From positions 1 through 52,157 of IMG/VR virus record IMGVR_UViG_3300025822_000795: 52,157 nt of DNA. One strand, written 5' to 3'. Every line of letters starts with the position of its first letter. Position 1 is the first letter of the stretch. A program made the translations under genes and the position numbers. Shown here in pieces: positions 15,101 through 41,773 of the stretch. The notes beneath the pieces are model-generated. The model was given only the letters and a program-made list of their open reading frames with translations, was not told the origin of the DNA and did not search any database. Origin of the DNA: a virus.

Positions 15101-17493
15101 ACAAAGAGAAAATGCTACTAGCTGGAATAACGGAAATTTCACCAGTACAGTTGAGTTATCCTAATTCAGTTGTTATAGGAACAAGGATTAACGCAAAAGA
15201 TGTTCCATCAATACCTAAAAGAAATTACAATTTAAAATTAAAAAAACTAGCGATACCCTCAAACTATAATCCGGATACAAGAATATACGATGGAAGTTGG
15301 AATGGGCTATTTAGGGGCCAATCCTCAAGCAGTGATCAAGTTCCTGATGCAGCTAAAGAATGGACCGACAATCCGGCTTGGTGTTTGTATGATTTAATAT
15401 CAAGCAAGAGATACGGGGTTGGTAAGTTTGGGGTAAGGCCTGAGAATATAGACAGGTGGACCCTTTATAGAATTGCTAAATATTGCGACGAGTTTGTTCC
15501 GACTGGTTATAGCTCAAAATACAAGCAGAGAGCGTTTAAGCTATATGGAGATAGAACTATAAAAATAGACCCTACAGAAAACTTAGATATTGCAAAATTC
15601 AATAAAGAGTTTAACCATCCGAATAAGAGGTTGGCTATATATTATGATAATAACAAGTATGAATCAATAAAGATAAATGGGACTTCAAATTCTGGAAACG
15701 AAGTAAGGCTAGAAATTAATCCATCTTTAGATTTTGGTAAATGCGCAGTAGAAATAGATTACCCTCTTGTGGAGCCTAGATATACTATTAATGCTTTTTT
15801 AATGAATTCCGATAATGCGTTTAAATTAATAAATGAATTTGCGGCAATTTTTAGAGCATTTGCATATTGGTCTGGTGGGGCAATTAATTTCTTTCAAGAC
15901 GAAAAGAAGGATTCAGTGATGCTTTTCGCTAACAACAACATATCTAAGGATGGATTCTCTTATTCAAATACTCCAAAAACCAGTAGGACAAATTCGTGCA
16001 AGATAAAATATGTCGATAGGTTTAATAATTTTAAATCAAAGATAGAATATTCCGAGGAAAGGGCGTCGGTGCAGAAAAATGGAATAATAGAGCAGACAAT
16101 AGATGGTTTTGGGATAACTTCTCAAGGGCAAGCCAAGAGAGCTGCTGATTTTGTCGTCAAAAGCGCCAACATGGAGTCAGAGATATTATCTTTTACGACT
16201 AGTTCAATCGGGTCTTATTTGAAACCGGGGGACGTGATAGACGTACTAGATAATAAGAGGACTATAGGAAGGTTTGCAGGCAAGATAACGGACATATCAA
16301 TATACGGAGACGGTAAGTCTGCTGAGATATCAATAGATTACCCAATCAATGCAATTATTGAAAAAGACGAAAAGGATACATGGAAAAATATAACATTATA
16401 TAATATATCTGGAAATGAAACTATAAAATCTCTGGATGAGAAAATTAAGCCAAGCGACCAAGAGATATCAAACATGAGATCCTCTCAGATAAAAACATTT
16501 ACAGCCGCAAGCCTTTACGGGGATGATCAGAAGTTATTATTAGTAAGTAATCCATATAGTTTTATTTCAGGAGAGTATACTTGGAGGGAGGCAAAAGAAG
16601 ACGCACTAGATAGGGGTGGAAGGTTGGCCACAATTACCAATGATACTGATCAGTTATTAATGCAATCAACCATTGAGTCTGGGCAAACTGGATGGATAGG
16701 TGGGTATTTCATAGATTTACCTCCGCCTCCTAGATTCATATGGGACCAGCCTGAAGCTTGCAATACTGATGAAATATCTTTCTATAGTTGGGCTGAAGGT
16801 TTTCCAAAAATAGGAGACTCTCTTCAAGACCATGAAGATCAAACCATAGTGACAGACTGTGATGAATTTGAAATAATGACAGACCCGCCAGATGGTTTTG
16901 GTAATTTTATAGCTGCAAGTGGGTCTGAAGATAATTCAATTAATGGAGATTGGGTAACGCTATCAGGAGTTAGTAAAATAGGATACATATTAGAGAGAGA
17001 GAGTGATGATTCTCTTTTCTCTTTAAAAGATGTCAAGGGTTCGACATTTATGATGGAAGACTCGGTAAACCTTGCTAAACCTAAGCAATTTAAAGTTGTA
17101 AACATAACAGAATCATCGAATGGAATTTTTGAAGTTAGGGGGCTAGAATACAATAAAGAAAAATTTGACAACATAGAAAAAAATATGTCGATAAAACATC
17201 CAGAATCTCCTGTTATTTTTACAGAAAGCGTCCTAGATGCACCCTCAGAAATAACCATTGAGATATTGAGCGAGGATGTATCCAGGAAAATACCATACGG
17301 ACTTAAGCTTTCGTGGAACACCGTGTTGTCTGCAGCAAGTTACAAGATTCAGTTTTTTAATGGAAATATATTGATATCTACATTTGAAATACCAAATGAT
17401 AAGGGGGTTGAGGTAAATTCTTATAGTTATAGAAATGAAGCAATTAAGGAAGATGGTAATTATTACGGGAGAGTATACTCTGTAGTTTCATAA
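12196..17493 (+). CDS. tail tip attachment protein: gpI-gpJ fusion with C-type-lectin-like and FN3 domains
   Basis: 1765 residues. Residues 1-~90 look like the ubiquitin-like gpI domain, followed by its Gly/Ala hydrophobic tail (~95-120). The gpJ signature follows: 'GATVPLGYGRMKVG', and near residue 1050 'WTDNPAWCLYDLI' with the preceding 'RNYNLK...IPSNYNP'. An extra hydrophobic stretch lies at ~814-880. Residues ~1437-1602 have the C-type-lectin pattern (TWREAK, GGRLATI, GWIGG, W/SW pair, final IGYILE), and ~1680-1765 resemble FN3. gpJ is the central tip protein that contacts the receptor; in lambda I and J are separate genes. The lectin-like domain is the likely receptor or glycan binder. 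The fusion is continuous with no frameshift. Confidence 0.85.
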   Translation: MKKVFLHGELGKEFGREWNLDVKSASEALSALFANNSSIEVYLNKKQQDDVFYGVRSGRSKSFLTSEEMSARTNEDFHLFPIPLGSGGAVVGLLVTAATTAASMYVSKKMAEAMQREDKTVKAQTQSFLFNGSENRYEQGATVPLGYGRMKVGSNTISACNVNYDYDSDKGDIFNFTSGLYSLIPTYSKYYNDEYGPLGSSFHVNQFDGSSKFKTADPAYLFLKTAPSLNTFGSNDGSYGQYEDAAAQQDRYVTQDSKNGNAIGGYMYYEYNYFKGLNKSLLGNAQANGNWFQDSNILDNTLAVSSAAAIKSSLVCLQSSPIAGNEEKVFYPIMFADGELTSARNPIDRNNQGFAPIQVGERWKGADKNNGVGWFKLESASVYKAVDLVCEGPIDGFSDNNGDTLKFRKELERNDDPALMRNSMDDYLQGVYLNDDQAKEVNHATNLDSYNINEFDIDIGMNKDGLIGSNDQSLLEPQYLFTANTKDINAPLYGPRSINQGAIITEQSDIGPFKQNKTYKLGELVSYQDDGQSYNYKLSNSLSNKFSKNEDYNYAADDVKIVYEENGDSKTFYAATQLINEYNAFDGGYVDIENDNYYLPGDKIKSESFLGGVEYYEMGPDSEKFLGVFDYKKTYAGLNGYVIMKSQGDVNSTSPIYKITGDYNPAENDSIGEFAKLLMHKYRDENNQEKIVSNDPIYILKNTEDEDLAGNRIIGDEQDITPSTSNLWQSIVITSPQDEIKNGPIGPGSQGDKYDGDLNLFKFANNDSVELVKSQEEEYYVAHSIINPLVEEVYVSLQIDELAYIYEGDELNVTYKPGALMGALFGLMIVAEDATAVAGGILAAIGLPTEPGAKVMGGKEMAKALAKIAAVTTLGAVLGNNTKFKIGTKVENSGETWPNRARFRIKYGNQGESQYSTDVYIYGVATSPYRKDVKIYLPPNPSAKDRSIKVYKLNRERNPVKEGEQSARYKEKMLLAGITEISPVQLSYPNSVVIGTRINAKDVPSIPKRNYNLKLKKLAIPSNYNPDTRIYDGSWNGLFRGQSSSSDQVPDAAKEWTDNPAWCLYDLISSKRYGVGKFGVRPENIDRWTLYRIAKYCDEFVPTGYSSKYKQRAFKLYGDRTIKIDPTENLDIAKFNKEFNHPNKRLAIYYDNNKYESIKINGTSNSGNEVRLEINPSLDFGKCAVEIDYPLVEPRYTINAFLMNSDNAFKLINEFAAIFRAFAYWSGGAINFFQDEKKDSVMLFANNNISKDGFSYSNTPKTSRTNSCKIKYVDRFNNFKSKIEYSEERASVQKNGIIEQTIDGFGITSQGQAKRAADFVVKSANMESEILSFTTSSIGSYLKPGDVIDVLDNKRTIGRFAGKITDISIYGDGKSAEISIDYPINAIIEKDEKDTWKNITLYNISGNETIKSLDEKIKPSDQEISNMRSSQIKTFTAASLYGDDQKLLLVSNPYSFISGEYTWREAKEDALDRGGRLATITNDTDQLLMQSTIESGQTGWIGGYFIDLPPPPRFIWDQPEACNTDEISFYSWAEGFPKIGDSLQDHEDQTIVTDCDEFEIMTDPPDGFGNFIAASGSEDNSINGDWVTLSGVSKIGYILERESDDSLFSLKDVKGSTFMMEDSVNLAKPKQFKVVNITESSNGIFEVRGLEYNKEKFDNIEKNMSIKHPESPVIFTESVLDAPSEITIEILSEDVSRKIPYGLKLSWNTVLSAASYKIQFFNGNILISTFEIPNDKGVEVNSYSYRNEAIKEDGNYYGRVYSVVS

Positions 17494-20000
17494 TGTCATT
17501 CTCAAATTCCAGAACAGTAAAGGTGCCATTGTCGGACCCAATCCCGAAATACGGAAAAACTTTTAGGGTATCTAATATTTATTTAAATTCTTCAAGCCAG
17601 AAACAGAGGGTAAATGATCTAAGCCCATCTTCATCTCAGACATCTTATTACAGTCAAGACTTCGAGAATAAATACCTATCAGTGGGTTGGAGCGTAATAG
17701 ATCCTAGAAGCGACTACGAGTACAAGGTAAGCGCAGATATAGAAAGTAATAAATATATAAGCGGTTTTAATGTAGATATATATAAAAATTATGGAGAATT
17801 AACTGGACAAAATGCAATAGATAACGGTGAGAAAGTATTTTCAGCAACTGGAATAAAAAATAATTCTATAGAATATGAAATAAATGATAATGATTTTCAT
17901 AGAAATTATTCTGTTGAAGTGACGCTTGTTGATTTCACAGGCAACAAGAGTGTTGGATTGCTTACGACGCAGAATCCGTATGCAGAGTTTACTGTTCCCG
18001 TAAGTGGCGTGGAATCCGGTATATTTAGATGCAATTATATTAAGCCCACAGGGGAAAATGGCGAAGATGAATCTCATGATCTTCAGTATGTGACTTTTTA
18101 TGATTTTACTGGATTGCAAATGGGGACCTTCCCTGGGGCGAGCAATAGTGCAAGAAGTGTCTTGTCAAAAAATGGTTATTTAGAAATAGAATTAACCCCT
18201 GGAACTGCGAATTACATAATGTCCATAGCTTCGGATTCTTATTCGTCTGGGAGTCCATATGGATTCTTTAAAGATCAGGAATATTTAACCGGCACTGGAT
18301 TCACTGGTTACGTAGGCAGGAATGATGAGCCATTTTTAATAGATTACTACCCTGAAGTTAGCTCTATTAGTGGTGGTAGAATATCTGGAGCTGATGCATA
18401 TCATTATGAATTCGAAGTGAATTACGACACTGGCAGTAATTTACTTCATACTGTTTATGGTATAACGGGAACGGGTCAAACGTCTGGTTCTGTTTCTGGT
18501 TACGATGGGCAAATATTCTTCGATAGTGGGGTTTTGTTTAATCCAAGCTATAATGAGAGTAATACTGGATTGCAGTATATTTATGATAACTCACTTAGCC
18601 TGCAGAGCGGTTTTTTTACTGGTGAGTTAATTGACGTGCGAACGGTAACTGGAGTTGGGTTTACCGGCTCTGGAACATATGGAAGTGGAGCTGGGCATTA
18701 TTGGCAGGAAGGTTTTCCGAAATACACAGGCTACGAATCTACCGGTGCAGGAGGGGAAATAATTTCTGGGGGTTTTTATGATTATGGGTACTTTGACCCA
18801 TACATGGGGAAATTTAAATGCGCAAGTTATTCCGAAGTGAAATCCGAAAATCAGGAACCTGTTGGCATATATTCAATGCCAAAAAACAATCCAAATAGCT
18901 ATGATATAAAATATAGATCAACTTCAAATTTCACAAAAACATATGAACAGGCAGCTTCTTATTTGAATTCAATAGGAGAAATGCCGGCGGTTATATTAAA
19001 CCCTTCGCAATTAAATAAGTTAGTTAATATTAGCGGCGACATTGGGTGGGTTGGTTTGAGAAGAAATAAGGTCGCTGTGCTTACCGGAATTTTTAATCAA
19101 GATTTTGATAATCAATCATTTTTTGATGGAGTGAATTTTGATAATGAATTTAGCAGGGATTTAGAATTTATTAATTCAAGTGGGGATTTAGAGAGGTCAA
19201 GATTAGAAGTTAATAACGTAGGGGGTGATTGGTGTTGGACTAATTCAAGTGGAACTCATATATATAAATATGCGGGAAGTGGTTATGAAAAGACGAGAAG
19301 CGCAAATATATCCTTTGACATAATTAGGGATATTGATGGTAGGGTTATTAGCTCAACTGGATACACTGCGGAAGCCCCGCCGATGGAAATTTCTGAGATT
19401 ACAGTTGAGTCAGGAAATCAAACAGTAAAGTTTGATTATAAATTCACAAATCAATATTTCGAAACTGGTAATACTAATTATAACGTGGTACAAATGAACC
19501 TATATGGAGGTACAGGCGAAGGTTTTATCGCAAATGATGGTAGTTTGTTATCAACACATTACATAACAGAACAGAACAATGGATCAAATGGGGGTGATTT
19601 AATGCAAGGCTCTATTTCTTACGAAATTAATCAGGGGTACTCAGTTCCGGAATATTTTAAGTTAATGCCGTTTGATACAATAGGTTCGGGGATATTAGCC
19701 AACGTAAACGAATTAGCCGGACAAGGATCTATTACGACTAGCTCAACCGACCAAGCTACAATTATAAGTTTGGATGGGCTTTATTTTAATAAATCAAATT
19801 GCATAAATGTGGAGTTTCCATTCAACCACCCTAATGTGCCTGTTGTTACATTTGGATTGAATTATACAGGGAGCAATGATAATGTATCCTACCTGGGCGC
19901 AATGATAGCTAGTGAGCCTAGTAAGTCTTCAGTTAGGTTTGTACTAACAAGCCCTCCCCCAAGCACTGGATACGCATTAAACGTTAGATCCGTAAGTTAA
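17493..20000 (+). CDS. tail fibre / receptor-binding-like protein
   Basis: 835 residues, with its ATG overlapping the gpJ-like stop (TAATG). The N-terminal ~170 residues continue the FN3-like pattern of gpJ. Residues ~170-470 are rich in Gly, Thr, Tyr and Ser with repeated 'GTGFTGYVG'-type motifs, typical of fibrous, beta-rich phage proteins. Residues ~480-600 have a weak C-type-lectin-like plan (helix with 'YEQAASYLNSIG', 'GWVGLRR', then 'GGDWCWTNSSG'). The C-terminal ~200 residues resemble the closing domain of many marine phage fibres ('VEFPFNHPNVPVVTFGLNYTG'), where a high-variability tip is common. Role is inferred from position and composition. Confidence 0.7.
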   Translation: MSFSNSRTVKVPLSDPIPKYGKTFRVSNIYLNSSSQKQRVNDLSPSSSQTSYYSQDFENKYLSVGWSVIDPRSDYEYKVSADIESNKYISGFNVDIYKNYGELTGQNAIDNGEKVFSATGIKNNSIEYEINDNDFHRNYSVEVTLVDFTGNKSVGLLTTQNPYAEFTVPVSGVESGIFRCNYIKPTGENGEDESHDLQYVTFYDFTGLQMGTFPGASNSARSVLSKNGYLEIELTPGTANYIMSIASDSYSSGSPYGFFKDQEYLTGTGFTGYVGRNDEPFLIDYYPEVSSISGGRISGADAYHYEFEVNYDTGSNLLHTVYGITGTGQTSGSVSGYDGQIFFDSGVLFNPSYNESNTGLQYIYDNSLSLQSGFFTGELIDVRTVTGVGFTGSGTYGSGAGHYWQEGFPKYTGYESTGAGGEIISGGFYDYGYFDPYMGKFKCASYSEVKSENQEPVGIYSMPKNNPNSYDIKYRSTSNFTKTYEQAASYLNSIGEMPAVILNPSQLNKLVNISGDIGWVGLRRNKVAVLTGIFNQDFDNQSFFDGVNFDNEFSRDLEFINSSGDLERSRLEVNNVGGDWCWTNSSGTHIYKYAGSGYEKTRSANISFDIIRDIDGRVISSTGYTAEAPPMEISEITVESGNQTVKFDYKFTNQYFETGNTNYNVVQMNLYGGTGEGFIANDGSLLSTHYITEQNNGSNGGDLMQGSISYEINQGYSVPEYFKLMPFDTIGSGILANVNELAGQGSITTSSTDQATIISLDGLYFNKSNCINVEFPFNHPNVPVVTFGLNYTGSNDNVSYLGAMIASEPSKSSVRFVLTSPPPSTGYALNVRSVS

Positions 20001-20003
20001 GCG

Positions 20004-20041
20004 GCTAAGATATTAAACTGATTAATATCTTGGCGTCTTTT
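20004..20041 (+). terminator. rho-independent terminator of the tail operon
   Basis: AAGATATTAA (20007-20016) and TTAATATCTT (20022-20031) form a perfect 10-bp stem with a 5-base loop, extended by three more pairs (one G-T), and are followed by GTCTTTTT on the plus strand. It overlaps the last codons of the convergent minus-strand gene. There is no T tract on the minus side, so it is directional for the tail genes. Confidence 0.8.
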
Positions 20042-20823
20042 ACTGATATATCGTCCCAGTCTTTCCATGATTCTATATTTTTGTTTTGATACACTCCTTC
20101 TTTTTTTGCTTGCCAGCATTTCTTAATAAAAGGTTTAAAGTCTTCAAATGAATCAGTAAATAAAACGCTTTTAGCTCTATTCCTTAAGGTCGTTACTGGG
20201 CTAAATGGGTCGCTTTTTTTAGACGAATCTTGATGCGCAGGTGCGTTTGGGTTTGATTTATCAATCTCGTCATCTCCAACTATATGGACATTAAGGAAGT
20301 TCCTAACACATCTAACAAACGACCTATTGCAAGCTATGGTCTCTAGAAATTTGGTAGCAAAACTACTTGTGTTTCTTGTGCTTGCATTGGCCATATCTTG
20401 GAATGAAACTGGATTATTTCCTGTTTCATAATTAGGTATAAAGATCGTGCTACAGGTGACTGCAACGTGATCTTCTTCGCATTTATCGATAGAATAAGAT
20501 ATATTTGAAAAACCTCTTAGCCTGGCAAGCTCCTTGATTCCGCTAAGCTTAATTAATAACTGATTATCTTTTAGCCCTTCTATGGATCTTGGCATGTCTT
20601 TATTTCGGGCCTGAAACCAAAGCTTATTTGGGAATAAATGTTCTTCTTTTATCATTGCCCTCCAGTTAACTGATCCGTCCTCATTGAAGACATATTGAAT
20701 GTTTTTTAGTAAGCCGTTTTCGTCTCTGTTGAATAAAGATGGACCGATAGAGTTATCTATTTTAGAGTCTGAAATGGTTGAGGAGTTTTCGGTTGTTGTT
20801 TCACTTTTTTTTGATTTTGTCAT
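20005..20823 (-). CDS. candidate single-strand DNA annealing protein (Rad52/ERF-like)
   Basis: 272 residues. The N-terminal ~35 are Ser/Thr-rich and probably disordered. The core (~60-185) reads 'LSGIKELARLRGF', then 'VAVTCSTIFIPNYET', then a helix with 'NASTRNTSSFATKFLETIA' and 'NRSFVRCVRNFL'. This order (beta sheet, then a helix with a conserved Ala/Thr-Arg series) is like phage annealing proteins of the Rad52/ERF type, but I see no exact family signature. It is the last gene of a minus-strand operon; an SSB gene is 6 kb away on the same strand, a common partner of phage recombinases. It overlaps the GT9 half gene by 23 bases. Another DNA-binding role is possible. Confidence 0.45.
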   Translation of the reverse strand: MTKSKKSETTTENSSTISDSKIDNSIGPSLFNRDENGLLKNIQYVFNEDGSVNWRAMIKEEHLFPNKLWFQARNKDMPRSIEGLKDNQLLIKLSGIKELARLRGFSNISYSIDKCEEDHVAVTCSTIFIPNYETGNNPVSFQDMANASTRNTSSFATKFLETIACNRSFVRCVRNFLNVHIVGDDEIDKSNPNAPAHQDSSKKSDPFSPVTTLRNRAKSVLFTDSFEDFKPFIKKCWQAKKEGVYQNKNIESWKDWDDISVKDAKILISLIS

Positions 20824-24884: not shown

Positions 24885-25181
24885 CTATTTTTTATCTAAT
24901 TTATTACAGCTTAATTGTATTAAATCCAATAGAGAATCAAATAACCAACAACAAGCACTAGAGCATAAAGGAAATAACAAATATAAAATATTACTTTCTT
25001 TAAAATTATACATTAATAAACCAATAAAGAAACCACACCAAAAGCCTAAACATAAACTACAATTAAATAATTCTTTTAATAAATTAGAATGTTTAAAAAT
25101 AAAACTTCTCAGACGGCCTAATATGGACCCATACCTAAGGATCCACATTAAGCCGACACAGGAGATCAATTCAATTACCAT
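24885..25181 (-). CDS. small membrane protein, DUF1360-like
   Basis: 98 residues with two or three predicted membrane segments (about 2-17, 46-60 and 64-85) and the motif 'FNCSLCLGFWCGFFIG', which is typical of DUF1360-type small phage membrane proteins that carry a C-x-x-C near the membrane. Cysteines are frequent (seven). It overlaps the 62-residue gene by 11 bases. No enzymatic role can be assigned; such proteins sit in the inner membrane and are often found near phage regulatory or lysis genes. Confidence 0.6.
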   Translation of the reverse strand: MVIELISCVGLMWILRYGSILGRLRSFIFKHSNLLKELFNCSLCLGFWCGFFIGLLMYNFKESNILYLLFPLCSSACCWLFDSLLDLIQLSCNKLDKK

Positions 25182-34860: not shown

Positions 34861-35695
34861 AATCGGAGTTATAGGGAATGGCTTCGTTGGTTCCGCAGTT
34901 GCCAACGGATTTTCGTCTGAGGAAGTAAAGGTATATGATAAAAATCCAGACTCGTCAACTCACCCACTTAGAGATGTAATACTTCAGGATTTTGTTTTCA
35001 TATGCGTCCCAACGCCAATGAGGGATGTTATGGGAGATGACTGCAATCTATCAATTATAGAGTCCTGCTTTAGCGAAATTAAATCCATCGGATCGAACGC
35101 CACCTTCATAATAAAATCAACGGTTCCAATTGGGACAACCGAAAGCCTACAGGAAGCGCATCCGGAATTACATATCATCCATTCCCCAGAATTTCTTACC
35201 GCTAAATTCGCAAAAGAAGATTTCATTAATGCAGATAGGCACATAATAGGCTATACCAAATACCAGCACGTCGCACAGGAAGCTGCCAGCTTATTTAAAT
35301 ACAATTTTCCTGATGTGCCATGTCTTATAATGAAAAGCGTTGAGTCTGAATCTGTAAAGTATATCGCTAATTGTTTCTTTGCTACCAAGGTTAGTTTTTT
35401 CAATGAGATACACTTGCTGATTGATAAACTTGGATTAGATTGGAACTCTATTATTAATGGAGTTATTAGTGACAAAAGAATAGGTGAGTCCCACTATCAA
35501 GTTCCCGGTCACGACGGAGACAAAGGTTTTGGTGGCACATGCTTCCCAAAAGACATTAATGCATTAATATCCACCTTTGAGAAAAATGGGCTAGATGCGA
35601 AACTTTTAAAATCAGCATGGTCAGTTAATCTAGACGTAAGGAAAGACCTGGACTGGGCAAACTCAACTTCTGCCGTAGACAATAGCGATTCATAA
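34838..35695 (+). CDS. short UDP-glucose/GDP-mannose dehydrogenase
   Basis: 285 residues, TTG start overlapping the epimerase by 23 bases. 'IGVIGNGFVGSAVANGF' is the NAD loop, 'IKSTVPIGT' holds T95, 'HSPEFLTAKFA' E118, 'SVKYIANCF' K174/N178, and 'KGFGGTCFPKD' the nucleophile C235 with D239. The oxidation domain therefore looks intact. The C-terminal nucleotide-binding domain (usual length 390-440) is missing, so it either acts as a dimer with a reduced site or binds the donor differently. It would make a UDP-uronate (or GDP-mannuronate) for the glycan pathway. Confidence 0.8.
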   Translation: MKRTDQIKIGVIGNGFVGSAVANGFSSEEVKVYDKNPDSSTHPLRDVILQDFVFICVPTPMRDVMGDDCNLSIIESCFSEIKSIGSNATFIIKSTVPIGTTESLQEAHPELHIIHSPEFLTAKFAKEDFINADRHIIGYTKYQHVAQEAASLFKYNFPDVPCLIMKSVESESVKYIANCFFATKVSFFNEIHLLIDKLGLDWNSIINGVISDKRIGESHYQVPGHDGDKGFGGTCFPKDINALISTFEKNGLDAKLLKSAWSVNLDVRKDLDWANSTSAVDNSDS

Positions 35696-35711
35696 ATTTA
35701 ACAATAAGCAC

Positions 35712-35767
35712 ACTAGGGATTCTGTCTATCATCTTGTTTGTTTAAGATTCTCATATTCATCCTTGGT
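35712..35767 (+). ncRNA. structured element, copy 1 (before nrdA)
   Basis: A 9-bp outer stem (35712-35720 with 35759-35767) encloses conserved 'TTCTGTCTATC' and an inner hairpin ATCTTG/TAAGAT (35731-35736, 35743-35748). The 33-base core is 30/33 identical to copy 2. The two copies have three double compensatory changes in the outer stem, so the pairing is conserved while the sequence is not. It lies after the dehydrogenase stop and 35 bases before the nrdA promoter. Function unknown: terminator, mRNA end element or module boundary. Confidence 0.6.
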
Positions 35768-35801
35768 TCTCTTATTGTTAATAAATTATTTTCGTTTTTA
35801 C

Positions 35802-35830
35802 TTGATCTACACGTTTTTTTATGTTAGTAT
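35802..35830 (+). promoter_or_regulatory. sigma70-like promoter of nrdA
   Basis: TTGATC (35802-35807), 17-base spacer, TAGTAT (35825-35830). The predicted start site is near 35837, giving a leader of about 59 bases that has no Shine-Dalgarno sequence before the ATG at 35896. Confidence 0.65.
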
Positions 35831-35895
35831 GCTTTCTTTAACAAAACTTACATTTTTTATAAAACAACACAACCCCTTAGTGTAAAAACAATTTC

Positions 35896-38364
35896 ATGAA
35901 TATTAAAGTTAAGAAAAGAAACGGCCGCCTAGAAGAATTTGAAGTAGATAAAATAAACGCAAGCGCATTAAGAGCGTGCAGTGACATAGACAACGTTTCT
36001 CCAAGCGAAATAGTTCTAGATGCCCAATTACAGTTATTCGACAAAATAACTACTATCGAAATAGACAAAGCTTTAGTTTTATCTGCTAGGGAAAAAATAG
36101 AAAAAGAGCCAAACTACTCTTACGCTGCTGCAGGGTTACTATTAAACTGCTTATACAAAGAAGTATTCAAAGAAGGGGTCGACTCAGAAGCTTTTGAATT
36201 GCAGTACAGAAAAAGCTTCATACAGAACATTAAAAAATTAGTAAAGCAAGAGATGCTGGACGAAAGATTACTTGGCTTTGATTTCACCAAACTCTCAGAG
36301 GCGCTAAAGATAGACAGGGACAAGAAGTTTAAATACCTAGGAATCCAGATACTATTTGATCGTTACTTCATAAGAAGTGAAAAGAAAATAATGGAAACTC
36401 CTCAAGCTTTTTGGATGAGAGTTGCAATGGGTCTAGCTATTAACGAAGAAGATAAAAACGAAAAAGCAATAGAGTTTTACAATCTGTTTAGTCAATTTTT
36501 ATACACAGCTTCTACCCCCACACTATTCAATAGTGGCACAACCCACTCGCAACTTAGCTCTTGCTATCTCAATACTTTTGATGATAGTATTGATGGCATA
36601 TTTGATGGAGCTTGGCAGGAAGCTAGAAAATCTAAGTTTGCGGGTGGTCTAGGTTTTGATGTAACTCCATTTAGGTCTTCAGGCTCCCACATCAAGGGAA
36701 CAAATGGAACTTCTGGAGGCTTAATTCCATGGTTGAAAATTTACAACGACTTGCTGGTTGCTGTAAACCAAGGTGGAAAGCGTCCAGGAGCAGGTTGTGC
36801 ATACCTAGAGCCTTGGCATTTAGACTTTGAGGATTTCTTAAACTTAAGAAGAAATACTGGTGACGATAGACTCAGATGTCACGATATGAATACCGCCTCA
36901 TGGATCCCAGATATCTTCATGAGAAAAGTTGAAGCTAATGAGGATTGGTACTTCTTCGACCCGAACGAAAAGCTCACTGATAGCGATGTAAGCCTACACG
37001 ATTCCTTTGGTAAAGATTTTGACAATAGATATCAAGCAATGTGTCAATCAGCAGAAGACGGAAATGTTAAAAACTTTAGAAAAACTCCAGCAAAAGAGTT
37101 GTGGAAAAAAATGCTCAAGGTATTATTTGAGACATCACATCCTTGGTGCACATTCAAAGATCCGTGTAATATAAGATACACTAATCAGCACGAAGGAGTT
37201 GTCCATAGTAGTAATCTATGTACAGAAATAACACTCCACACTAAAGCCTCTAAATATAAATCCGGCGAGAAGACTGAAATTGGCGAGACTGCTGTATGCA
37301 ACCTAGGATCAATAAATCTACTGAACCATGTGGAGGAGAAGTCCACGCACGGTAAGTCTGGTTATTTCATTAATTACGATAAACTAAAATCAACAATACA
37401 CACGGCCGTAAGAATGCTTGATAATGTTATTGATATCAACTTTTATCCAACAAAAGAAGCCGCTAACTCAAATCTAAAAAATCGCCCTATAGGGCTAGGT
37501 ATGATGGCGATACACGACGTGCTTCATAAATTAAATATTAATATTGATAGCGATGAATCTATTAAATTCAACGATGAATTGTTTGAGTTTTATTCCTGCC
37601 AGTCTATATATGCTAGCTCCATACTAGCTAAGGAAAGAGGATCCTATGAAACTTATGAAGGCTCATTATGGAGTCAAAACATTTTTCCAATTGATTCCTA
37701 CAATAACCTAATGTCCTACAAGGGTCAAGCTCCACTTGGTAATGGTGAAACCAAGAAAGACGAGTGGGAAATCTCAAGGCAACATGTTTCTGAATTCGGT
37801 ATGAGAAACTCTAATGTTATGGCTATTGCGCCAACTGCAACCATAGGTTATATTAACGGAGTAGAGCAAAGCATTGAGCCCAACTTTTCCGTACTCTTTG
37901 TTTATGAAAATAAAAGCGGCAACTTCTTTATTACCAACCAGCATTTTATTGATGACATGAAAAACGAAGGCTTATGGAGCCCAGAGGTGGCAAAGCTAGT
38001 CAAGGATGTTGACGGAGATCTTTCTTTACTTGATGGCGATATCCCACAGTGGATAAAGGAAAAATACAAAACCGCCTTTGACAGGGATATGTTCAAGTTA
38101 ATAGAATGCAATGCAGCTAGGCAAAAATGGCTCGACCAAGCGATTAGCTTTAATTTATACAACAAGTCAACATCCTTGAAGTACTTAAACGACATTTATA
38201 TGGAGTGCTGGAAATTAGGACTAAAGACAACGTATTATTTAAGGAATAGGGCCGCCAGTAAGGTGGAGAAGTCAACCTCCGAAGAGTCAAATTCTTCTAG
38301 CTCTCAAACTTCCTGCAGTATTGAAGCAATGAAGAATGGTGGAGAATGTGAAAGCTGCCAATAG
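35896..38364 (+). CDS. nrdA: ribonucleoside-diphosphate reductase alpha subunit (class I)
   Basis: 822 residues. Residues 1-~90 form an ATP-cone ('VKKRNGRLEEFEVDKI'), the allosteric activity site. The barrel carries C223 ('SSCYLNTFD'), thiyl C442 with E444 ('NLCTEI'), N440 and C468 ('ETAVCNLGSINL'). 'VMAIAPTATIGYINGVEQSIEP' and Y780/Y781 for radical transfer are present. The end has C818-x-x-C821 for re-reduction by thioredoxin or glutaredoxin. All catalytic residues are intact. It makes dNDPs for replication with the NrdB at 40648. A Ser-rich linker (792-808) precedes the Cys tail. Confidence 0.95.
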   Translation: MNIKVKKRNGRLEEFEVDKINASALRACSDIDNVSPSEIVLDAQLQLFDKITTIEIDKALVLSAREKIEKEPNYSYAAAGLLLNCLYKEVFKEGVDSEAFELQYRKSFIQNIKKLVKQEMLDERLLGFDFTKLSEALKIDRDKKFKYLGIQILFDRYFIRSEKKIMETPQAFWMRVAMGLAINEEDKNEKAIEFYNLFSQFLYTASTPTLFNSGTTHSQLSSCYLNTFDDSIDGIFDGAWQEARKSKFAGGLGFDVTPFRSSGSHIKGTNGTSGGLIPWLKIYNDLLVAVNQGGKRPGAGCAYLEPWHLDFEDFLNLRRNTGDDRLRCHDMNTASWIPDIFMRKVEANEDWYFFDPNEKLTDSDVSLHDSFGKDFDNRYQAMCQSAEDGNVKNFRKTPAKELWKKMLKVLFETSHPWCTFKDPCNIRYTNQHEGVVHSSNLCTEITLHTKASKYKSGEKTEIGETAVCNLGSINLLNHVEEKSTHGKSGYFINYDKLKSTIHTAVRMLDNVIDINFYPTKEAANSNLKNRPIGLGMMAIHDVLHKLNINIDSDESIKFNDELFEFYSCQSIYASSILAKERGSYETYEGSLWSQNIFPIDSYNNLMSYKGQAPLGNGETKKDEWEISRQHVSEFGMRNSNVMAIAPTATIGYINGVEQSIEPNFSVLFVYENKSGNFFITNQHFIDDMKNEGLWSPEVAKLVKDVDGDLSLLDGDIPQWIKEKYKTAFDRDMFKLIECNAARQKWLDQAISFNLYNKSTSLKYLNDIYMECWKLGLKTTYYLRNRAASKVEKSTSEESNSSSSQTSCSIEAMKNGGECESCQ

Positions 38365-38758
38365 AAGAGCTTCTGGGGTTGCTGTACTATTTGAAAATTC
38401 AGTACTATTAGCGAAGAGATCAGAGAAGTGCCACGTTACCGGAAGGTCATATCCTTACGGAGGTTACTGGTCTGTTTTCGGTGGATCAATAGACGAAGGC
38501 GAAACTCCAATTGAATGCGCCGGAAGAGAATTATTAGAAGAGTCTAAAATATTTGCAGACTTTAAATTTATTGAGTTTATCGATGTGATAAGAGATGAAT
38601 CTTGCGATTTCTACTTTCACATATATAGATCCAACAAGATAGTGATTCCAGAGCTTTGCCAAGAACACACCGAGTTTGGTTGGTTTAAAATCAACGAGCT
38701 GGTTCACTTCCAAGACTTGATAGACTACAACATAGTTAGGCTGCTAGATAGTATATAA
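38336..38758 (+). CDS. Nudix hydrolase
   Basis: 140 residues, ATG overlapping the nrdA end by 29 bases. The Nudix box is 'GGSIDEGETPIECAGRELLEESKI', i.e. G-x5-E-x7-R-E-L-x-E-E with the usual Gly near the end replaced by Lys. 'VAVLFENSVLLAKRSEK' and 'YWSVFGGS' fit the family core. These enzymes hydrolyse nucleoside diphosphates linked to another group; here the coupling to nrdA suggests cleaning of damaged dNTPs or nucleotide-sugar recycling. The start is not supported by a Shine-Dalgarno sequence. Confidence 0.85.
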   Translation: MVENVKAANRRASGVAVLFENSVLLAKRSEKCHVTGRSYPYGGYWSVFGGSIDEGETPIECAGRELLEESKIFADFKFIEFIDVIRDESCDFYFHIYRSNKIVIPELCQEHTEFGWFKINELVHFQDLIDYNIVRLLDSI

Positions 38759-38784
38759 TTACAATTTCATGTGTATTTATATAC

Positions 38785-39930
38785 ATGAGTAAAAAACTAA
38801 TACAATCAATAATTTCCGTATTACTAGACAATCCAGTATCCAAATACGTCAAAAAAAATAAATTTTCAGAAAAAAAATTAAATGTTTCCGAGCATCCTGC
38901 CGATAAAAGAGATTGGGTTCACGTCTCTCAGTATTTAAAATCTGAAAGTATTAGCAGTAAGGAATTCTCCAGAAGATCACTATGCGTAAGCGTCGCTAAC
39001 CAAGGGTCAATAGGTTCATGCGTGGGTCACAGCGGAAGGGTTGTTCTTGGTTCGGCTAGTGCGTTTAAGGCTGAAGAGCCAAGCCCTATGTGGATATACA
39101 AGACTGCTAAAAAATACGACCCATGGGCTGGCGAAGATTACTCAGGAACATCGATCAGGGGGGCTGCTAACGCATTAATAAACGAAGGTTGCTGCTTTGA
39201 AAGCTTTTGGCCATATATAGATAGCGAATCCAGCAGCCCTAAAGAAGGGGCAAAAGAAGACGCTGGACTAAAGAAGATTAGCTCCTACCACGTTATACCC
39301 TGCTCCGAAACAGAAGAGATCAAAAGGATGGTGATTGACCGGCCACTTTGGTATGCATTCAAGGTTAGGGATTACTTTTTCTCTATTGGATATGACGGCA
39401 TTGTTGACACAGAAAAATACTTAGCATCAGAGGTTGCTGGCGGCCACGCAGTATGTCTTATCGGATGGAAGTATATAAACGACAAGCTTTATTGGGAATT
39501 TCAAAACAGTTGGGGTTTATTTTTTGGAAACTCTGGCTACTTTTTTATGGAGGATTCCTTATTTAGGTCTTCTATCATGAACTCTATTGGCCCCTACTAT
39601 GTAGAGCTTTCGGATGGGTTTGTTAATCCAAAACCAATTGACCCCGATCCAGAACCTATCGAACCAGATCCAGAACCTATCGAACCAGAACCAGAACCTA
39701 TCGAACCAGAACCAGAACCCATCAAACCAGAACCTAAGAAAAGCAAAAACATACCATTGATAATTTGCGCAATAATTGTGATTCTAGCATTAATTATATT
39801 TTCCAGCTCCTCTGACCCCGAAGCATTACCAATGAACTGGGATGAAAAATTAGAAAAAGAGTTTAAAGAGAAAGGCATAGATAGAGACTCATACTTGCGC
39901 GATTTTAAGAAAAAACAGCAAGCAGAGTAA
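38785..39930 (+). CDS. papain-like cysteine protease with C-terminal membrane anchor
   Basis: 381 residues. The C1 peptidase set is complete: oxyanion Q73, nucleophile C79 ('QGSIGSCVGHS'), H221 ('AGGHAVCLIGW'), N241 ('FQNSWG'). Residues ~285-318 are a Pro/Glu spacer with four 7-residue units (E/D-PEPIEP), and ~323-341 a single hydrophobic helix, followed by a charged tail. No N-terminal signal peptide is present, so the C-terminal helix is a tail anchor that would leave the protease in the cytoplasm unless inserted otherwise. Its substrate is unknown; host defence or virion processing are options. Confidence 0.8.
   Translation: MSKKLIQSIISVLLDNPVSKYVKKNKFSEKKLNVSEHPADKRDWVHVSQYLKSESISSKEFSRRSLCVSVANQGSIGSCVGHSGRVVLGSASAFKAEEPSPMWIYKTAKKYDPWAGEDYSGTSIRGAANALINEGCCFESFWPYIDSESSSPKEGAKEDAGLKKISSYHVIPCSETEEIKRMVIDRPLWYAFKVRDYFFSIGYDGIVDTEKYLASEVAGGHAVCLIGWKYINDKLYWEFQNSWGLFFGNSGYFFMEDSLFRSSIMNSIGPYYVELSDGFVNPKPIDPDPEPIEPDPEPIEPEPEPIEPEPEPIKPEPKKSKNIPLIICAIIVILALIIFSSSSDPEALPMNWDEKLEKEFKEKGIDRDSYLRDFKKKQQAE
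39646..39729 (+). repeat. four tandem 21-bp repeats (PEPIEP units)
   Basis: Four in-frame copies of GA(T/A)CCAGAACC(T/C)ATC(G/A)AACCA encode the Pro/Glu spacer of the protease. Copies 1 and 2 are identical; copies 3 and 4 differ at one to three positions. Copy number is likely to vary between strains. Confidence 0.9.
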
Positions 39931-40247
39931 TGAATCTGATCATAGACTCAACCCTATCCGAACCTCCCAGCGAGATATCCTGCTTCAGGGACGTAACTAT
40001 GTATAGTAAAGTGTTTCATTTTGAAAACGTACTACTTTCCTGCAAGATGGGCACAAGATCTATGTACTGGAACTGGTTAAAGAATAACGGCGCTCATGAT
40101 TTCATCTCTTATGTTCTCCACGAGGGAGAGTTGGAATCTGGCGCATTAATGCATCCAGAAAAAGGAGATATAGTCGTAGATAGAATAAACGCGCTCAACT
40201 TAAACTACATAATAACCAGGCTCAAAAGAATATCAGAAAATCTATAA
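39930..40247 (+). CDS. hypothetical protein
   Basis: 105 residues; ATG overlaps the protease stop (TAATG). It is soluble with no signal or membrane segment and is mixed alpha/beta. 'FENVLLSCKMGTRSMYWNWLKNNGAHDFISYVLHEGE' is the most distinctive part. I do not recognise a family. Tight coupling to the protease and to the next gene suggests that the three genes work together. Confidence 0.5.
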   Translation: MNLIIDSTLSEPPSEISCFRDVTMYSKVFHFENVLLSCKMGTRSMYWNWLKNNGAHDFISYVLHEGELESGALMHPEKGDIVVDRINALNLNYIITRLKRISENL

Positions 40248-40571
40248 ATGAAAAAATATATATTAATTTTAATCATTCCCTTCTTGCTTAATTGTTCTAC
40301 ATTTAAAAAAAGTAAAAACACCAATAACTCAACAAGTATACAACAAGTTATACCAAGTATTAATGATTTCAATAAAGCTGATATAAATAAAGACCAAGTT
40401 ATAGATAAAAATGAATCAATTAAATTTTTTAATAAAAACAATTCAATAGACTACAATACTCCTTTTGCAGTTTTCTCTATACTGTCGACCATTGTTATGG
40501 TTATTTGTTTTTGGCCGATAGTTTATTCTTATTTATCGTCTTTAATTAAAAGATTCAAGAATCGTTCTTGA
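40248..40571 (+). CDS. small lipoprotein-like protein with EF-hand loop and C-terminal membrane segment
   Basis: 107 residues. The N-terminus 'KKYILILIIPFLLNC' is a short signal peptide with C16 as candidate lipid site, although Asn at -1 is atypical. Residues 45-56 are an EF-hand/dockerin calcium loop D-I-N-K-D-Q-V-I-D-K-N-E, with all ligands present. A second hydrophobic segment (~73-98) ends before a basic tail. It would be anchored at both ends, spanning little of the periplasm. A spanin-like or envelope role is possible but I cannot assign it. The gene follows the previous stop directly. Confidence 0.6.
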   Translation: MKKYILILIIPFLLNCSTFKKSKNTNNSTSIQQVIPSINDFNKADINKDQVIDKNESIKFFNKNNSIDYNTPFAVFSILSTIVMVICFWPIVYSYLSSLIKRFKNRS

Positions 40572-40579
40572 TTTTTTAC

Positions 40580-40608
40580 TTGACCTTTCTTGTTTTTTAT
40601 TGTATAGT
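40580..40608 (+). promoter_or_regulatory. sigma70-like promoter of nrdB
   Basis: TTGACC (40580-40585), 17-base spacer, TATAGT (40603-40608). Predicted start near 40615, leaving a leader of about 33 bases without a Shine-Dalgarno sequence. Confidence 0.78.
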
Positions 40609-40647
40609 TATGTGATCTAATTATTAATCGCATTCGTTATACTATAC

Positions 40648-41661
40648 ATGAAAGATAAAACAGGAGAACTTTTAACAGACAACATCGCCGGAGTAAACAG
40701 AATTTTACCCCACAAACATAAATACGCATGGGACCTATTCCTTAAGAGTTGTGCAAACAACTGGATGCCCACTGAAATATCTATGCAAAATGATATAGCC
40801 CAATGGAAGAACAATGAAATTACAGAAGATGAGAAATTACTTGTTAAACGATGTCTTGGATTTTTTGCTGGAAGTGAGTCTCTGGTTGGCAATAATTTGC
40901 TTTTGTCCGCTTTTCGTTATATTACAGACGCTGAGTGTCGCCAGTATATATTGCGTCAAGCTTTTGAAGAAAGTCTTCACAACCTAACTGTTGTATATAT
41001 ATGCGATAGTCTTGATTTAGAAATTGATGAGGTTTATGCGGCCTATCAAAATGTTCCAAGCATTAAAGCTAAGGATGACTTCTTAATGCAGATTACTGAT
41101 GATATTAGTTCTAATGACTTTAACTCAACTAGCATTGAGGGCAAGCAGGCCATACTAAGAAACTTCTTAACCTATTGGATTATATGCGAAGGTACTTTTT
41201 TCTTTAGTGGCTTTGCTATGCTTCTTGCGCTTGGTCGTCAAAATAAATTACAGGGTGTTTCTGATCAGATTAAATATACTTTGAGGGACGAAAGCTCTCA
41301 CATTGCATTTGGAACTTATCTCATCAATACTTTAATTGATCAAAACCCCTCTATTTGGACTAAAGAAATTCAAGAGGAATTCATTGAACACATTAAAAAA
41401 GCAGTTGACCTTGAAATTGCTTACGCAAAAGATGTTCTTCCCACTGGAATACTTGGGTTGAATGCAGACATGTTCGTAGACTATATGCATTATATCGGCA
41501 ATAGACGCTTAGAGGCCATAGGATTAGATTACAGGTTCCCTAGTGATAAGAACCCATTCCCTTGGCTAGGAGAGGTTGTTGACGTGCAGGCGATGGGTAA
41601 TTTCTTCGAAAGAAGAGTTCGCGAGTATCAACAAAGCGGCTCTTTAGAAGACGACTTTTAA
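40648..41661 (+). CDS. nrdB: ribonucleoside-diphosphate reductase beta subunit, class Ic-like
   Basis: 337 residues. Metal ligands can be placed: E77 ('GSESLVGNN'), E108 and H111 ('EESLHN'), E181 ('CEG'), E215 and H218 ('DESSHI'). The first is Glu, not the Asp of E. coli NrdB, and the position of the radical Tyr (H111+4) is V115. Y117 (H111+6) corresponds to chlamydial Y129. This matches the Chlamydia-type class Ic enzymes, which use a Mn/Fe cofactor without a tyrosyl radical, though Val rather than Phe is seen here. The C-terminal Y327 could serve radical transfer to NrdA. It has its own promoter. Confidence 0.92.
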   Translation: MKDKTGELLTDNIAGVNRILPHKHKYAWDLFLKSCANNWMPTEISMQNDIAQWKNNEITEDEKLLVKRCLGFFAGSESLVGNNLLLSAFRYITDAECRQYILRQAFEESLHNLTVVYICDSLDLEIDEVYAAYQNVPSIKAKDDFLMQITDDISSNDFNSTSIEGKQAILRNFLTYWIICEGTFFFSGFAMLLALGRQNKLQGVSDQIKYTLRDESSHIAFGTYLINTLIDQNPSIWTKEIQEEFIEHIKKAVDLEIAYAKDVLPTGILGLNADMFVDYMHYIGNRRLEAIGLDYRFPSDKNPFPWLGEVVDVQAMGNFFERRVREYQQSGSLEDDF

Positions 41662-41674
41662 ATTCTAAAAAGCG

Positions 41675-41732
41675 CCTTGGAGATTCTGTTTATCATCTTG
41701 TTTGATCAAGATTCATGTTTTCATCTTCAAGG
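41675..41732 (+). ncRNA. structured element, copy 2 (after nrdB)
   Basis: A 10-bp outer stem (41675-41684 with 41723-41732), conserved 'TTCTGTTTATC', and a 6-bp inner hairpin ATCTTG/CAAGAT (41695-41700, 41707-41712), then GAGTTTAATTTTATT. The conserved core aligns with copy 1 without gaps (offset 5964). Double compensatory changes in the outer stem support pairing. The trailing T-rich stretch could make this copy a terminator for nrdB. Confidence 0.6.
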
Positions 41733-41744
41733 AGTTTAATTTTA

Positions 41745-41773
41745 TTGGATATATAGCTTGCATGTAGTGTAAT
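41745..41773 (+). promoter_or_regulatory. weak sigma70-like promoter of the LamG adhesin
   Basis: TTGGAT (41745-41750), 17-base spacer, TGTAAT (41768-41773). The start site would be one base before the GTG at 41781, again a nearly leaderless transcript. Confidence 0.4.

What the first reader, a model, noticed from the sequence alone, without database searches (positions are those of the whole stretch)
35712..41732. A covarying structured element flanks the ribonucleotide reductase block as direct repeats
Two elements (35712-35767 and 41675-41732) align without gaps at an offset of 5964. The core is 30/33 identical, while the outer stem differs in sequence but stays paired: C-G becomes U-A, A-U becomes G-C, G-C becomes A-U, plus G-U to U-A. 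Three double compensatory changes in one 8-bp stem are strong evidence for selection on an RNA (or cruciform) structure. One copy lies just before the nrdA promoter, the other just after nrdB. They could be terminator-like mRNA elements, a nucleotide-responsive RNA, or recombination boundaries of a movable nrd module.
Basis: seen in the sequence. Interest (0 to 1): 0.85.

Follow-up and report, generated by a model that had tools for sequence, protein, structure and literature searches.

The report
Paired RNA hairpins flanking phage genes
An uncultured phage carries the same folded hairpin right after two of its gene blocks, where transcription probably ends; its stem keeps its pairing while its letters change, so the fold itself seems to be selected, but it is most likely an unusual form of a familiar stop signal.

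Summary
Two 69-nt elements (35706-35774, 41670-41738) align without gaps; the 33-nt core is 30/33 identical and the outer stem keeps all 9 pairs with four double compensatory changes. Homologues were found only in very close relatives: six virus records (window included) have both sites, a seventh fragment has site A, and a near-identical contig sits in a Flavobacteriaceae bin. Seven distinct full-length copies give 94% paired cells. G-U cells (19) outnumber A-C cells (3), pointing to coding-strand RNA.

Both copies begin 8-10 nt after a stop codon and precede a putative promoter. In my scan 14 of 80 NrdB relatives have a canonical terminator after nrdB (random windows: 6 of 800). Best reading: a transcript-end hairpin, probably a terminator, with an unexplained conserved apical core. 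Two records have site A without the core but with the basal stem.

An nrd riboswitch and a movable nrd module are not supported: relatives without the elements keep the nrd genes between the same outer neighbours. Against one relative (L019), element B is a sharp edge of an exchanged or remodelled downstream segment, which recalls promoter-terminator cassettes (PeSLs) of T4-like phages. No RNA data were at hand; function is inferred.

The parts
35706..35774 (+). Element A (69 nt), 10 nt after the stop codon of the UDP-glucose/GDP-mannose dehydrogenase-family gene
   Evidence: covariance model hit 93.5 bits, a sequence the model was built from
35712..35720 (+). Element A outer stem, 5' arm (pairs with 35759-35767)
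   Evidence: fold, pair counts
35759..35767 (+). Element A outer stem, 3' arm
35731..35748 (+). Element A inner hairpin AUCUUG-UUUGUU-UAAGAU, conserved in sequence
35698..35708 (+). Basal extension of the A stem, TTAACAATAAG, pairs with 35771-35781
   Evidence: fold of 35670-35900
35771..35781 (+). Basal extension of the A stem, 3' arm CTTATTGTTAA
35802..35830 (+). Putative promoter of nrdA downstream of element A: TTGATC, 17 nt, TAGTAT (8 of 12 matches to the sigma-70 consensus; below the cut-off of the promoter scan)
   Evidence: read by eye; a similar sequence at the same place in L022; not listed
41670..41738 (+). Element B (69 nt), 8 nt after the stop codon of nrdB
   Evidence: covariance model hit 92.1 bits, a sequence the model was built from
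41675..41684 (+). Element B outer stem, 5' arm (pairs with 41723-41732)
41723..41732 (+). Element B outer stem, 3' arm
41695..41712 (+). Element B inner hairpin AUCUUG-UUUGAU-CAAGAU
41767..41773 (+). GTGTAAT, putative promoter-like motif just upstream of the gene after nrdB
   Evidence: the same motif follows nrdB in L003, L016, L018, L021 and L022
34838..35695 (+). UDP-glucose/GDP-mannose dehydrogenase-family gene ('UGD') upstream of A
   Evidence: Pfam PF00984, PF03721
35896..38364 (+). nrdA, ribonucleotide reductase large chain
   Evidence: Pfam PF02867, PF00317, PF03477
40648..41661 (+). nrdB, ribonucleotide reductase small chain
   Evidence: Pfam PF00268
41675..44348 (+). Segment that differs from L019: from the 5' arm of element B through the 845-aa gene to the start of the DnaJ-like gene
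   Evidence: no differences to L019 in 41400-41674, 13 in 41675-41738; L019 has only a short related gene (match to residues 570-601) until about 44350

Best explanation
Each element is an RNA hairpin at the 3' end of a coding-strand transcript, most likely acting as a transcription terminator (or transcript-end former) for the block upstream (the sugar-nucleotide dehydrogenase block for A, the nrd block for B) and insulating the block downstream, which has its own putative promoter. Shown: two homologous copies, outer stem kept by compensatory change, sense-strand bias of wobble pairs, place after a stop codon and before the next gene's putative promoter. Inferred: that the RNA is made, that the hairpin ends transcripts, and that the conserved apical part (10x10 internal loop plus a 6-bp hairpin with a 6-nt loop) is read by a host or phage factor. 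The duplicate, and the sharp edge at B against one relative, are what dispersed copies of such a signal would allow by recombination.
For: Seven distinct full-length copies: 94.0% of cells paired and covariation score 0.281, against 88.2% and 0.171 in shuffles (0 of 500 reach either; the tool warns that related sequences can exceed shuffles without structure); sliding the partner by 1-3 columns gives at most 57.1%. G-U cells 19, A-C cells 3, of 133. The plus strand folds better than the minus strand in 6 of 7 full-length copies, though by only 0.2 kcal/mol in L018B. The element starts 8-10 nt after stop codons at both sites. 14 of 80 NrdB relatives have a canonical GC-rich hairpin plus T-run within 130 nt after nrdB, against 6 of 800 random windows of the same loci (the random windows are not matched for intergenic DNA). 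Six of those 14 have AAGC...GCTT arms as printed, and element B in L016 has AAGCGCC/GGCGCTT. Element A in L018 has seven T in a row after CCTTGG, some of which the fold pairs. The core-less copies in L016 and L158 keep the basal stem. The window's convergent gene junction near 20000 also carries a 13-bp hairpin between AAG and CTTTT.
Against: The T-run is good only in some copies: L018A scores 5.32 and L018B 3.45, but L016B 1.93, L003B 2.42, winB 2.50, and winA and L003A 2.74, on a tail score whose formula is recalled. The terminator scan does not report either element; its loop limit is 8 nt. A terminator does not need a conserved apical sequence, yet that is the best conserved part. L018B has 2 of 19 pairs broken and does not fold this way by minimum energy. 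L021 and L022 lack the element at both sites, had no canonical terminator after nrdB in my scan, and none was seen by eye before nrdA. L016B folds slightly better on the minus strand. Stability is not exceptional for the window.
Confidence: 0.55

Rival explanations
1. A processing or protein-binding RNA: a cleavage site (RNase III-like: long hairpin with internal loop between genes) or a stability element, with the conserved core as the binding site of a specific factor.
For: The core varies least: winA and winB share 29 of 32 core columns but 5 of 19 columns of the outer stem and its flanks. The inner hairpin is paired in all 7 copies counted. Stem, symmetric internal loop and apical hairpin stack into one long rod in winA, winB and L003A.
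Against: The core is missing at site A in two records, while the rest remains. No covariation in the inner hairpin: 5 of 6 pairs never vary. No binding factor or cleavage was looked for or could be.
Confidence: 0.22
2. A DNA-level element: a small fold-back insertion (MITE-like) or a repeat kept for recombination, whose hairpin is a by-product.
For: Homologous copies at two places 6 kb apart; absent at the corresponding junctions in L021, L022, L024 and L026. Site A has an 11-bp inverted repeat around it, whose right half (TTGTTAA) is also in element-free relatives. Against L019, element B is a sharp edge of an exchanged or remodelled segment.
Against: G-U cells outnumber A-C cells 19 to 3, which a DNA cruciform does not explain, though several are inherited. 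No third copy in the six carrier records, which may be fragments. Six exact patterns in IMG/VR gave no copy outside the close group. No clear target duplication by eye. Window and L019 stay alike across UGD and A, and divergence rises inside nrdA, not at A.
Confidence: 0.17
3. A nucleotide-responsive cis-regulatory RNA (riboswitch-like) of the nrd genes.
For: The two sites flank the nrd block in all six records that hold both.
Against: A lies upstream of the putative nrdA promoter and B after nrdB, so neither looks like a leader of an nrd gene. Among the 80 NrdB loci searched, no relative outside the close group scores above 18.5 bits. No Rfam family at gathering score in the window; matches below it around the two elements are weak and of unrelated families.
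Confidence: 0.04

Closest known systems
Intrinsic (Rho-independent) terminators of bacteria and T4-like phages
   Same: Hairpin just after a stop codon, T-rich downstream, at the end of a gene block; AAGC...GCTT arms as in 6 of the 14 canonical terminators found after nrdB in 80 relatives.
   Different: Stem not GC-rich in most copies, a 38-nt apical part with an internal loop and second hairpin, conserved apical sequence, and interrupted T-runs in several copies. PMC2988022 (passages seen) describes T4 terminators as GC-rich stem, 4-nt loop and poly(U) tract.
PeSLs, composite promoter-terminator motifs of T4-like myoviruses (Arbiol 2010, Comeau 2014; known here only through one citing passage and reference entries)
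   Same: Stem-loop plus putative promoter between genes; B is an edge of an exchanged or remodelled segment against L019. [quoted passage not shown]
   Different: Only the stem-loop is shared by A and B, not the promoter; only two copies; T4-like affiliation is not shown; the nrd block itself is not shown to shuffle.
RNase III processing hairpins of T7 (recalled, no call)
   Same: Intergenic stem, internal loop, upper stem.
   Different: Internal loop is 10x10 and the core is conserved in sequence; no cleavage data.

Membership tests
Intrinsic terminator | Stable hairpin on the sense RNA | tested here: met
   z -2.2 to -4.3 in the four copies tested; a further copy, L018B, fails by minimum energy
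Intrinsic terminator | T-run right after the stem | tested here: inconclusive
   7 T in a row in L018A; interrupted in the other copies
Intrinsic terminator | GC-rich stem with a short loop | tested here: not met
   Mixed stem, 38-nt apical part; not reported by the scan, whose loop limit is 8 nt
Intrinsic terminator | Ends transcripts | not testable with these tools
   No RNA data
PeSL cassette | Stem-loop next to a promoter, both repeated as one cassette (definition inferred from the title of Comeau 2014 and one citing passage) | tested here: not met
   Repeat A/B covers the stem-loop only (D4: 59 nt); the sequences downstream differ
PeSL cassette | Gene exchange at the repeats | tested here: inconclusive
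   Sharp edge at B against L019; against L020 and L016 the nrdB side also differs (143/150 and 141/150 over its last 150 nt), so the edge is less sharp; none at A
PeSL cassette | T4-like myovirus | tested here: inconclusive
   10 proteins against PHROGs gave only minor tail protein, glycosyltransferase and a weak regulator, with no family for the other 6; no megablast match to 24 kb among 50,697 phage records
Rfam families (any) | Score at or above the gathering cut-off | tested here: not met
   0 matches in the whole window
Insertion-type mobile element | Copies at many unrelated sites with target duplication | tested here: not met
   Two sites only, the same in the six records that hold both; no clear duplication by eye

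The most novel reading that the evidence does not exclude
A factor-controlled terminator: the basal stem ends transcription, while the conserved 10x10 internal loop and apical hairpin bind a phage or host protein that switches read-through, so that the nrd block and the segment after it can be joined to or cut from the upstream transcript during infection. Core-less natural alleles would be constitutive versions.
Probability: 0.1. Interest if true: 0.65.

Novelty: new variant of a known kind. Interest (0 to 1): 0.4.

Why it matters
Two copies in one genome and their relatives show a stem whose pairing is kept while its letters change, in an uncultured phage with no megablast match among 50,697 phage records and a closest NrdB there of 45% identity. 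If the conserved apical part is a binding site, it would be a controllable transcript-end signal; the natural core-less alleles give a ready comparison.

Tried and rejected
Chance similarity: rejected. Wider families: relaxed exact patterns in IMG/VR brought in other places that I take for chance. L007-L015 were judged by eye to lack the flanking stem, without a model search. L119, L121, L122 and L126 match only the inner hairpin, 20.8 bits. L128-L156 reach at most 18.4 bits. L159-L166 reach at most 24.9 bits; that best one, L165 (E 0.00066), was chosen by pattern, so its E-value is biased, and it was not pursued. The one pattern hit in genome contigs (L127, labelled Flavobacteriaceae MAG) is a 7.7-kb contig of a near-identical phage, so it says little about the host. 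Blast of element A against phage records: 5 weak matches, none covering 80%. Stability rank as proof of function: rejected, many coding windows rank higher. Promoter and terminator scan: reported neither element nor the putative nrdA promoter. A marine origin is my guess and comes from no call.

Rows dropped before the covariation count: copies identical to counted ones (L001/L002/L017 equal the window; L004/L020 equal L003; L127 equals L003A) and the core-less copies in L016 and L158. Seven rows were counted. The A copies barely vary among themselves in the stem, so most of the signal is A against B plus changes among B copies; these are few independent events.

Paper searches: (listings seen; one search found none). 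Passages were seen in PMC4503421, PMC2988022 and PMC3014915; only reference entries in PMC4177764, PMC5931544 and PMC5348500. Arbiol 2010 is not held; Comeau 2014 was not looked up.
Full report
Observation. They belong to one ungapped repeat, 59 nt at 78% identity and offset 5964. The 23-nt core occurs twice in the window and nowhere else in it at up to 3 mismatches, with 0.01 expected. The outer stem has 9 pairs in both copies. Between them four pairs change on both sides, one changes on one side and none is lost; random arms with as many changes keep all pairs in 1303 of 2,000,000 draws (8316 with the changed positions fixed). In winA, winB and L003A the fold is a stem of 9-10 pairs, a symmetric 10x10 internal loop, and a 6-bp hairpin with a 6-nt loop; L003B folds with extra inner pairs. 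At A a further 11-bp basal stem (35698-35708 with 35771-35781) encloses it.

Relatives. A covariance model of four copies (R1) was run over 85 sources: the window, the loci L001-L004 and the 80 NrdB-based loci, which kept the best 80 of 175 relatives. Sixteen full-length matches scored 71.5-96 bits and a core-less copy scored 35.2; several of these are the same contig seen twice, and four are the model's own sequences. One 24.9-bit row is the reverse strand of L016 B, and the other ten rows score 14.1-18.5. All real matches lie in six virus records (window, G001-G005), each with the same two sites next to UGD and nrdB; in G004 (L016) site A is core-less. Of 14 records searched whole, these 6 carry copies, 2 have chance-level matches (E 0.30 and 0.57) and 6 have none. 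A seventh carrier, L158, shows site A in the core-less form near the end of its contig. A contig in a Flavobacteriaceae MAG is a near-identical phage. So the element is real but, as far as searched, confined to a narrow group.

Structure test. Seven distinct full-length copies give 94.0% paired cells, 5 pairs with double changes, 11 double-change cells and a score of 0.281. Shuffles reach the paired percentage, the double-change cells and the score in 0 of 500, and the number of double-change pairs in 16 of 500; the number of further pair types is not higher than in shuffles (357 of 500 reach it). Related sequences can exceed shuffles without structure, and the structure was derived from some of these sequences, which favours it over slid versions. 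The inner hairpin has no double change. L018B has two A-C mismatches and does not fold in this shape by minimum energy. G-U cells (19) against A-C cells (3) of 133 favour an RNA of the + strand; seven of the 19 are one invariant G-U pair.

Place. A begins 10 nt after the stop codon of a UDP-glucose/GDP-mannose dehydrogenase-family gene and ends 27 nt before a putative promoter of nrdA, which is a weak match not listed by the scan. B begins 8 nt after the nrdB stop and is followed by a GTGTAAT motif and the next gene. By a simple ORF-based gene call these are the two largest gaps between neighbouring + strand genes of the window (200 and 119 nt). After nrdB, 14 of 80 relatives have canonical terminators by my scan, against 6 of 800 random windows, which are not matched for intergenic DNA. 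This makes a transcript-end role the simplest reading. The T-run is good in L018A but interrupted in others.

Gain, loss and recombination. Of the 24 loci mapped gene by gene (L016-L039), L021, L024 and L026 have UGD before nrdA and the DnaJ-like gene after nrdB without either element; L024 and L026 differ in the genes between nrdA and nrdB. L022 shows no dehydrogenase match and no element. The nrd block therefore keeps its place without the repeats. The core-less allele differs by 28 nt, and the missing piece is bounded by GATTC repeats, as a slippage deletion would leave; it is present in two contigs of different data sets. Window and L019 are identical from 41400 to 41674, differ at 13 of 69 positions in element B, then diverge: L019 has only a short related gene, matching residues 570-601 of the 845-aa protein, and the two are again 97.8% alike from about 44350. 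An exchange with a more distant lineage, or loss of the gene body with rapid change, would both fit. Against L020 and L016 the nrdB side also differs (143/150 and 141/150 over the last 150 nt; B 56/69 and 58/69), so the edge is sharp only against L019. At A, window and L019 differ at 1 of 69 positions and the rise in divergence lies inside nrdA. Element B thus changes or is exchanged faster than nrdB, with its stem kept in three of the four B copies compared (one of these, L016B, with a single A-C mismatch) and weakened in L018B.

What it is. I take it as a sense-strand transcript-end hairpin, probably a terminator, with an elaborate apical part of unknown use (0.55). A processing or protein-binding hairpin is next (0.22), a DNA-level repeat third (0.17), an nrd riboswitch unlikely (0.04). 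No Rfam family reaches its curated cut-off in the window. Among systems known to me, the PeSL cassettes of T4-like phages come closest in genomic behaviour; the original PeSL papers were not read, and a feature I take as defining (promoter and stem-loop repeated together) was not met. Six paper searches showed no description of this element in their listings; that is not proof of absence from print.

Noticed in passing
12171, 33935, 35880, 41767 (+): The motif GTGTAA occurs 8 times on the + strand; four of these lie 14-25 nt before an ORF start (12196, 33949, 35896, 41781), as a late-promoter-like signal would. Chance was not computed, and the 5 minus-strand occurrences were not examined.
   Followed up: partly
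25113-25155 (-): Part of the most stable 95-nt window of the sequence: a 17-pair stem (some G-U) with an 8-nt loop, inside the 5' part of the minus-strand ORF 24885-25181.
   Followed up: no
20004-20034: A 13-bp hairpin with AAG before and CTTTT after it lies at the junction of convergent ORFs (17493-20000 + and 20005-20823 -), like a bidirectional terminator.
   Followed up: no
38785-39930: A papain-family (C1) protease gene with a proline/glutamate-rich repeat lies inside the nrd block; the repeat is longer in L003.
   Followed up: no
40648-41661: NrdB is far more conserved than its neighbours: 96% identical to L021 while NrdA is 79%.
   Followed up: no
35775-35784: TTGTTAATAA just after element A is kept in element-free relatives upstream of nrdA (L021, L024, L026; L022 lacks its first T); possible regulatory site.
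   Followed up: no
L127 3895-3963: A near-identical phage contig is binned in an uncultured Flavobacteriaceae genome; a weak hint at the host or a binning error.
   Followed up: partly
L165 4882-4953: A 24.9-bit model match (E 0.00066 in a pattern-selected set) with the inner hairpin and a following GATTCTCATAT; probably chance.
   Followed up: no
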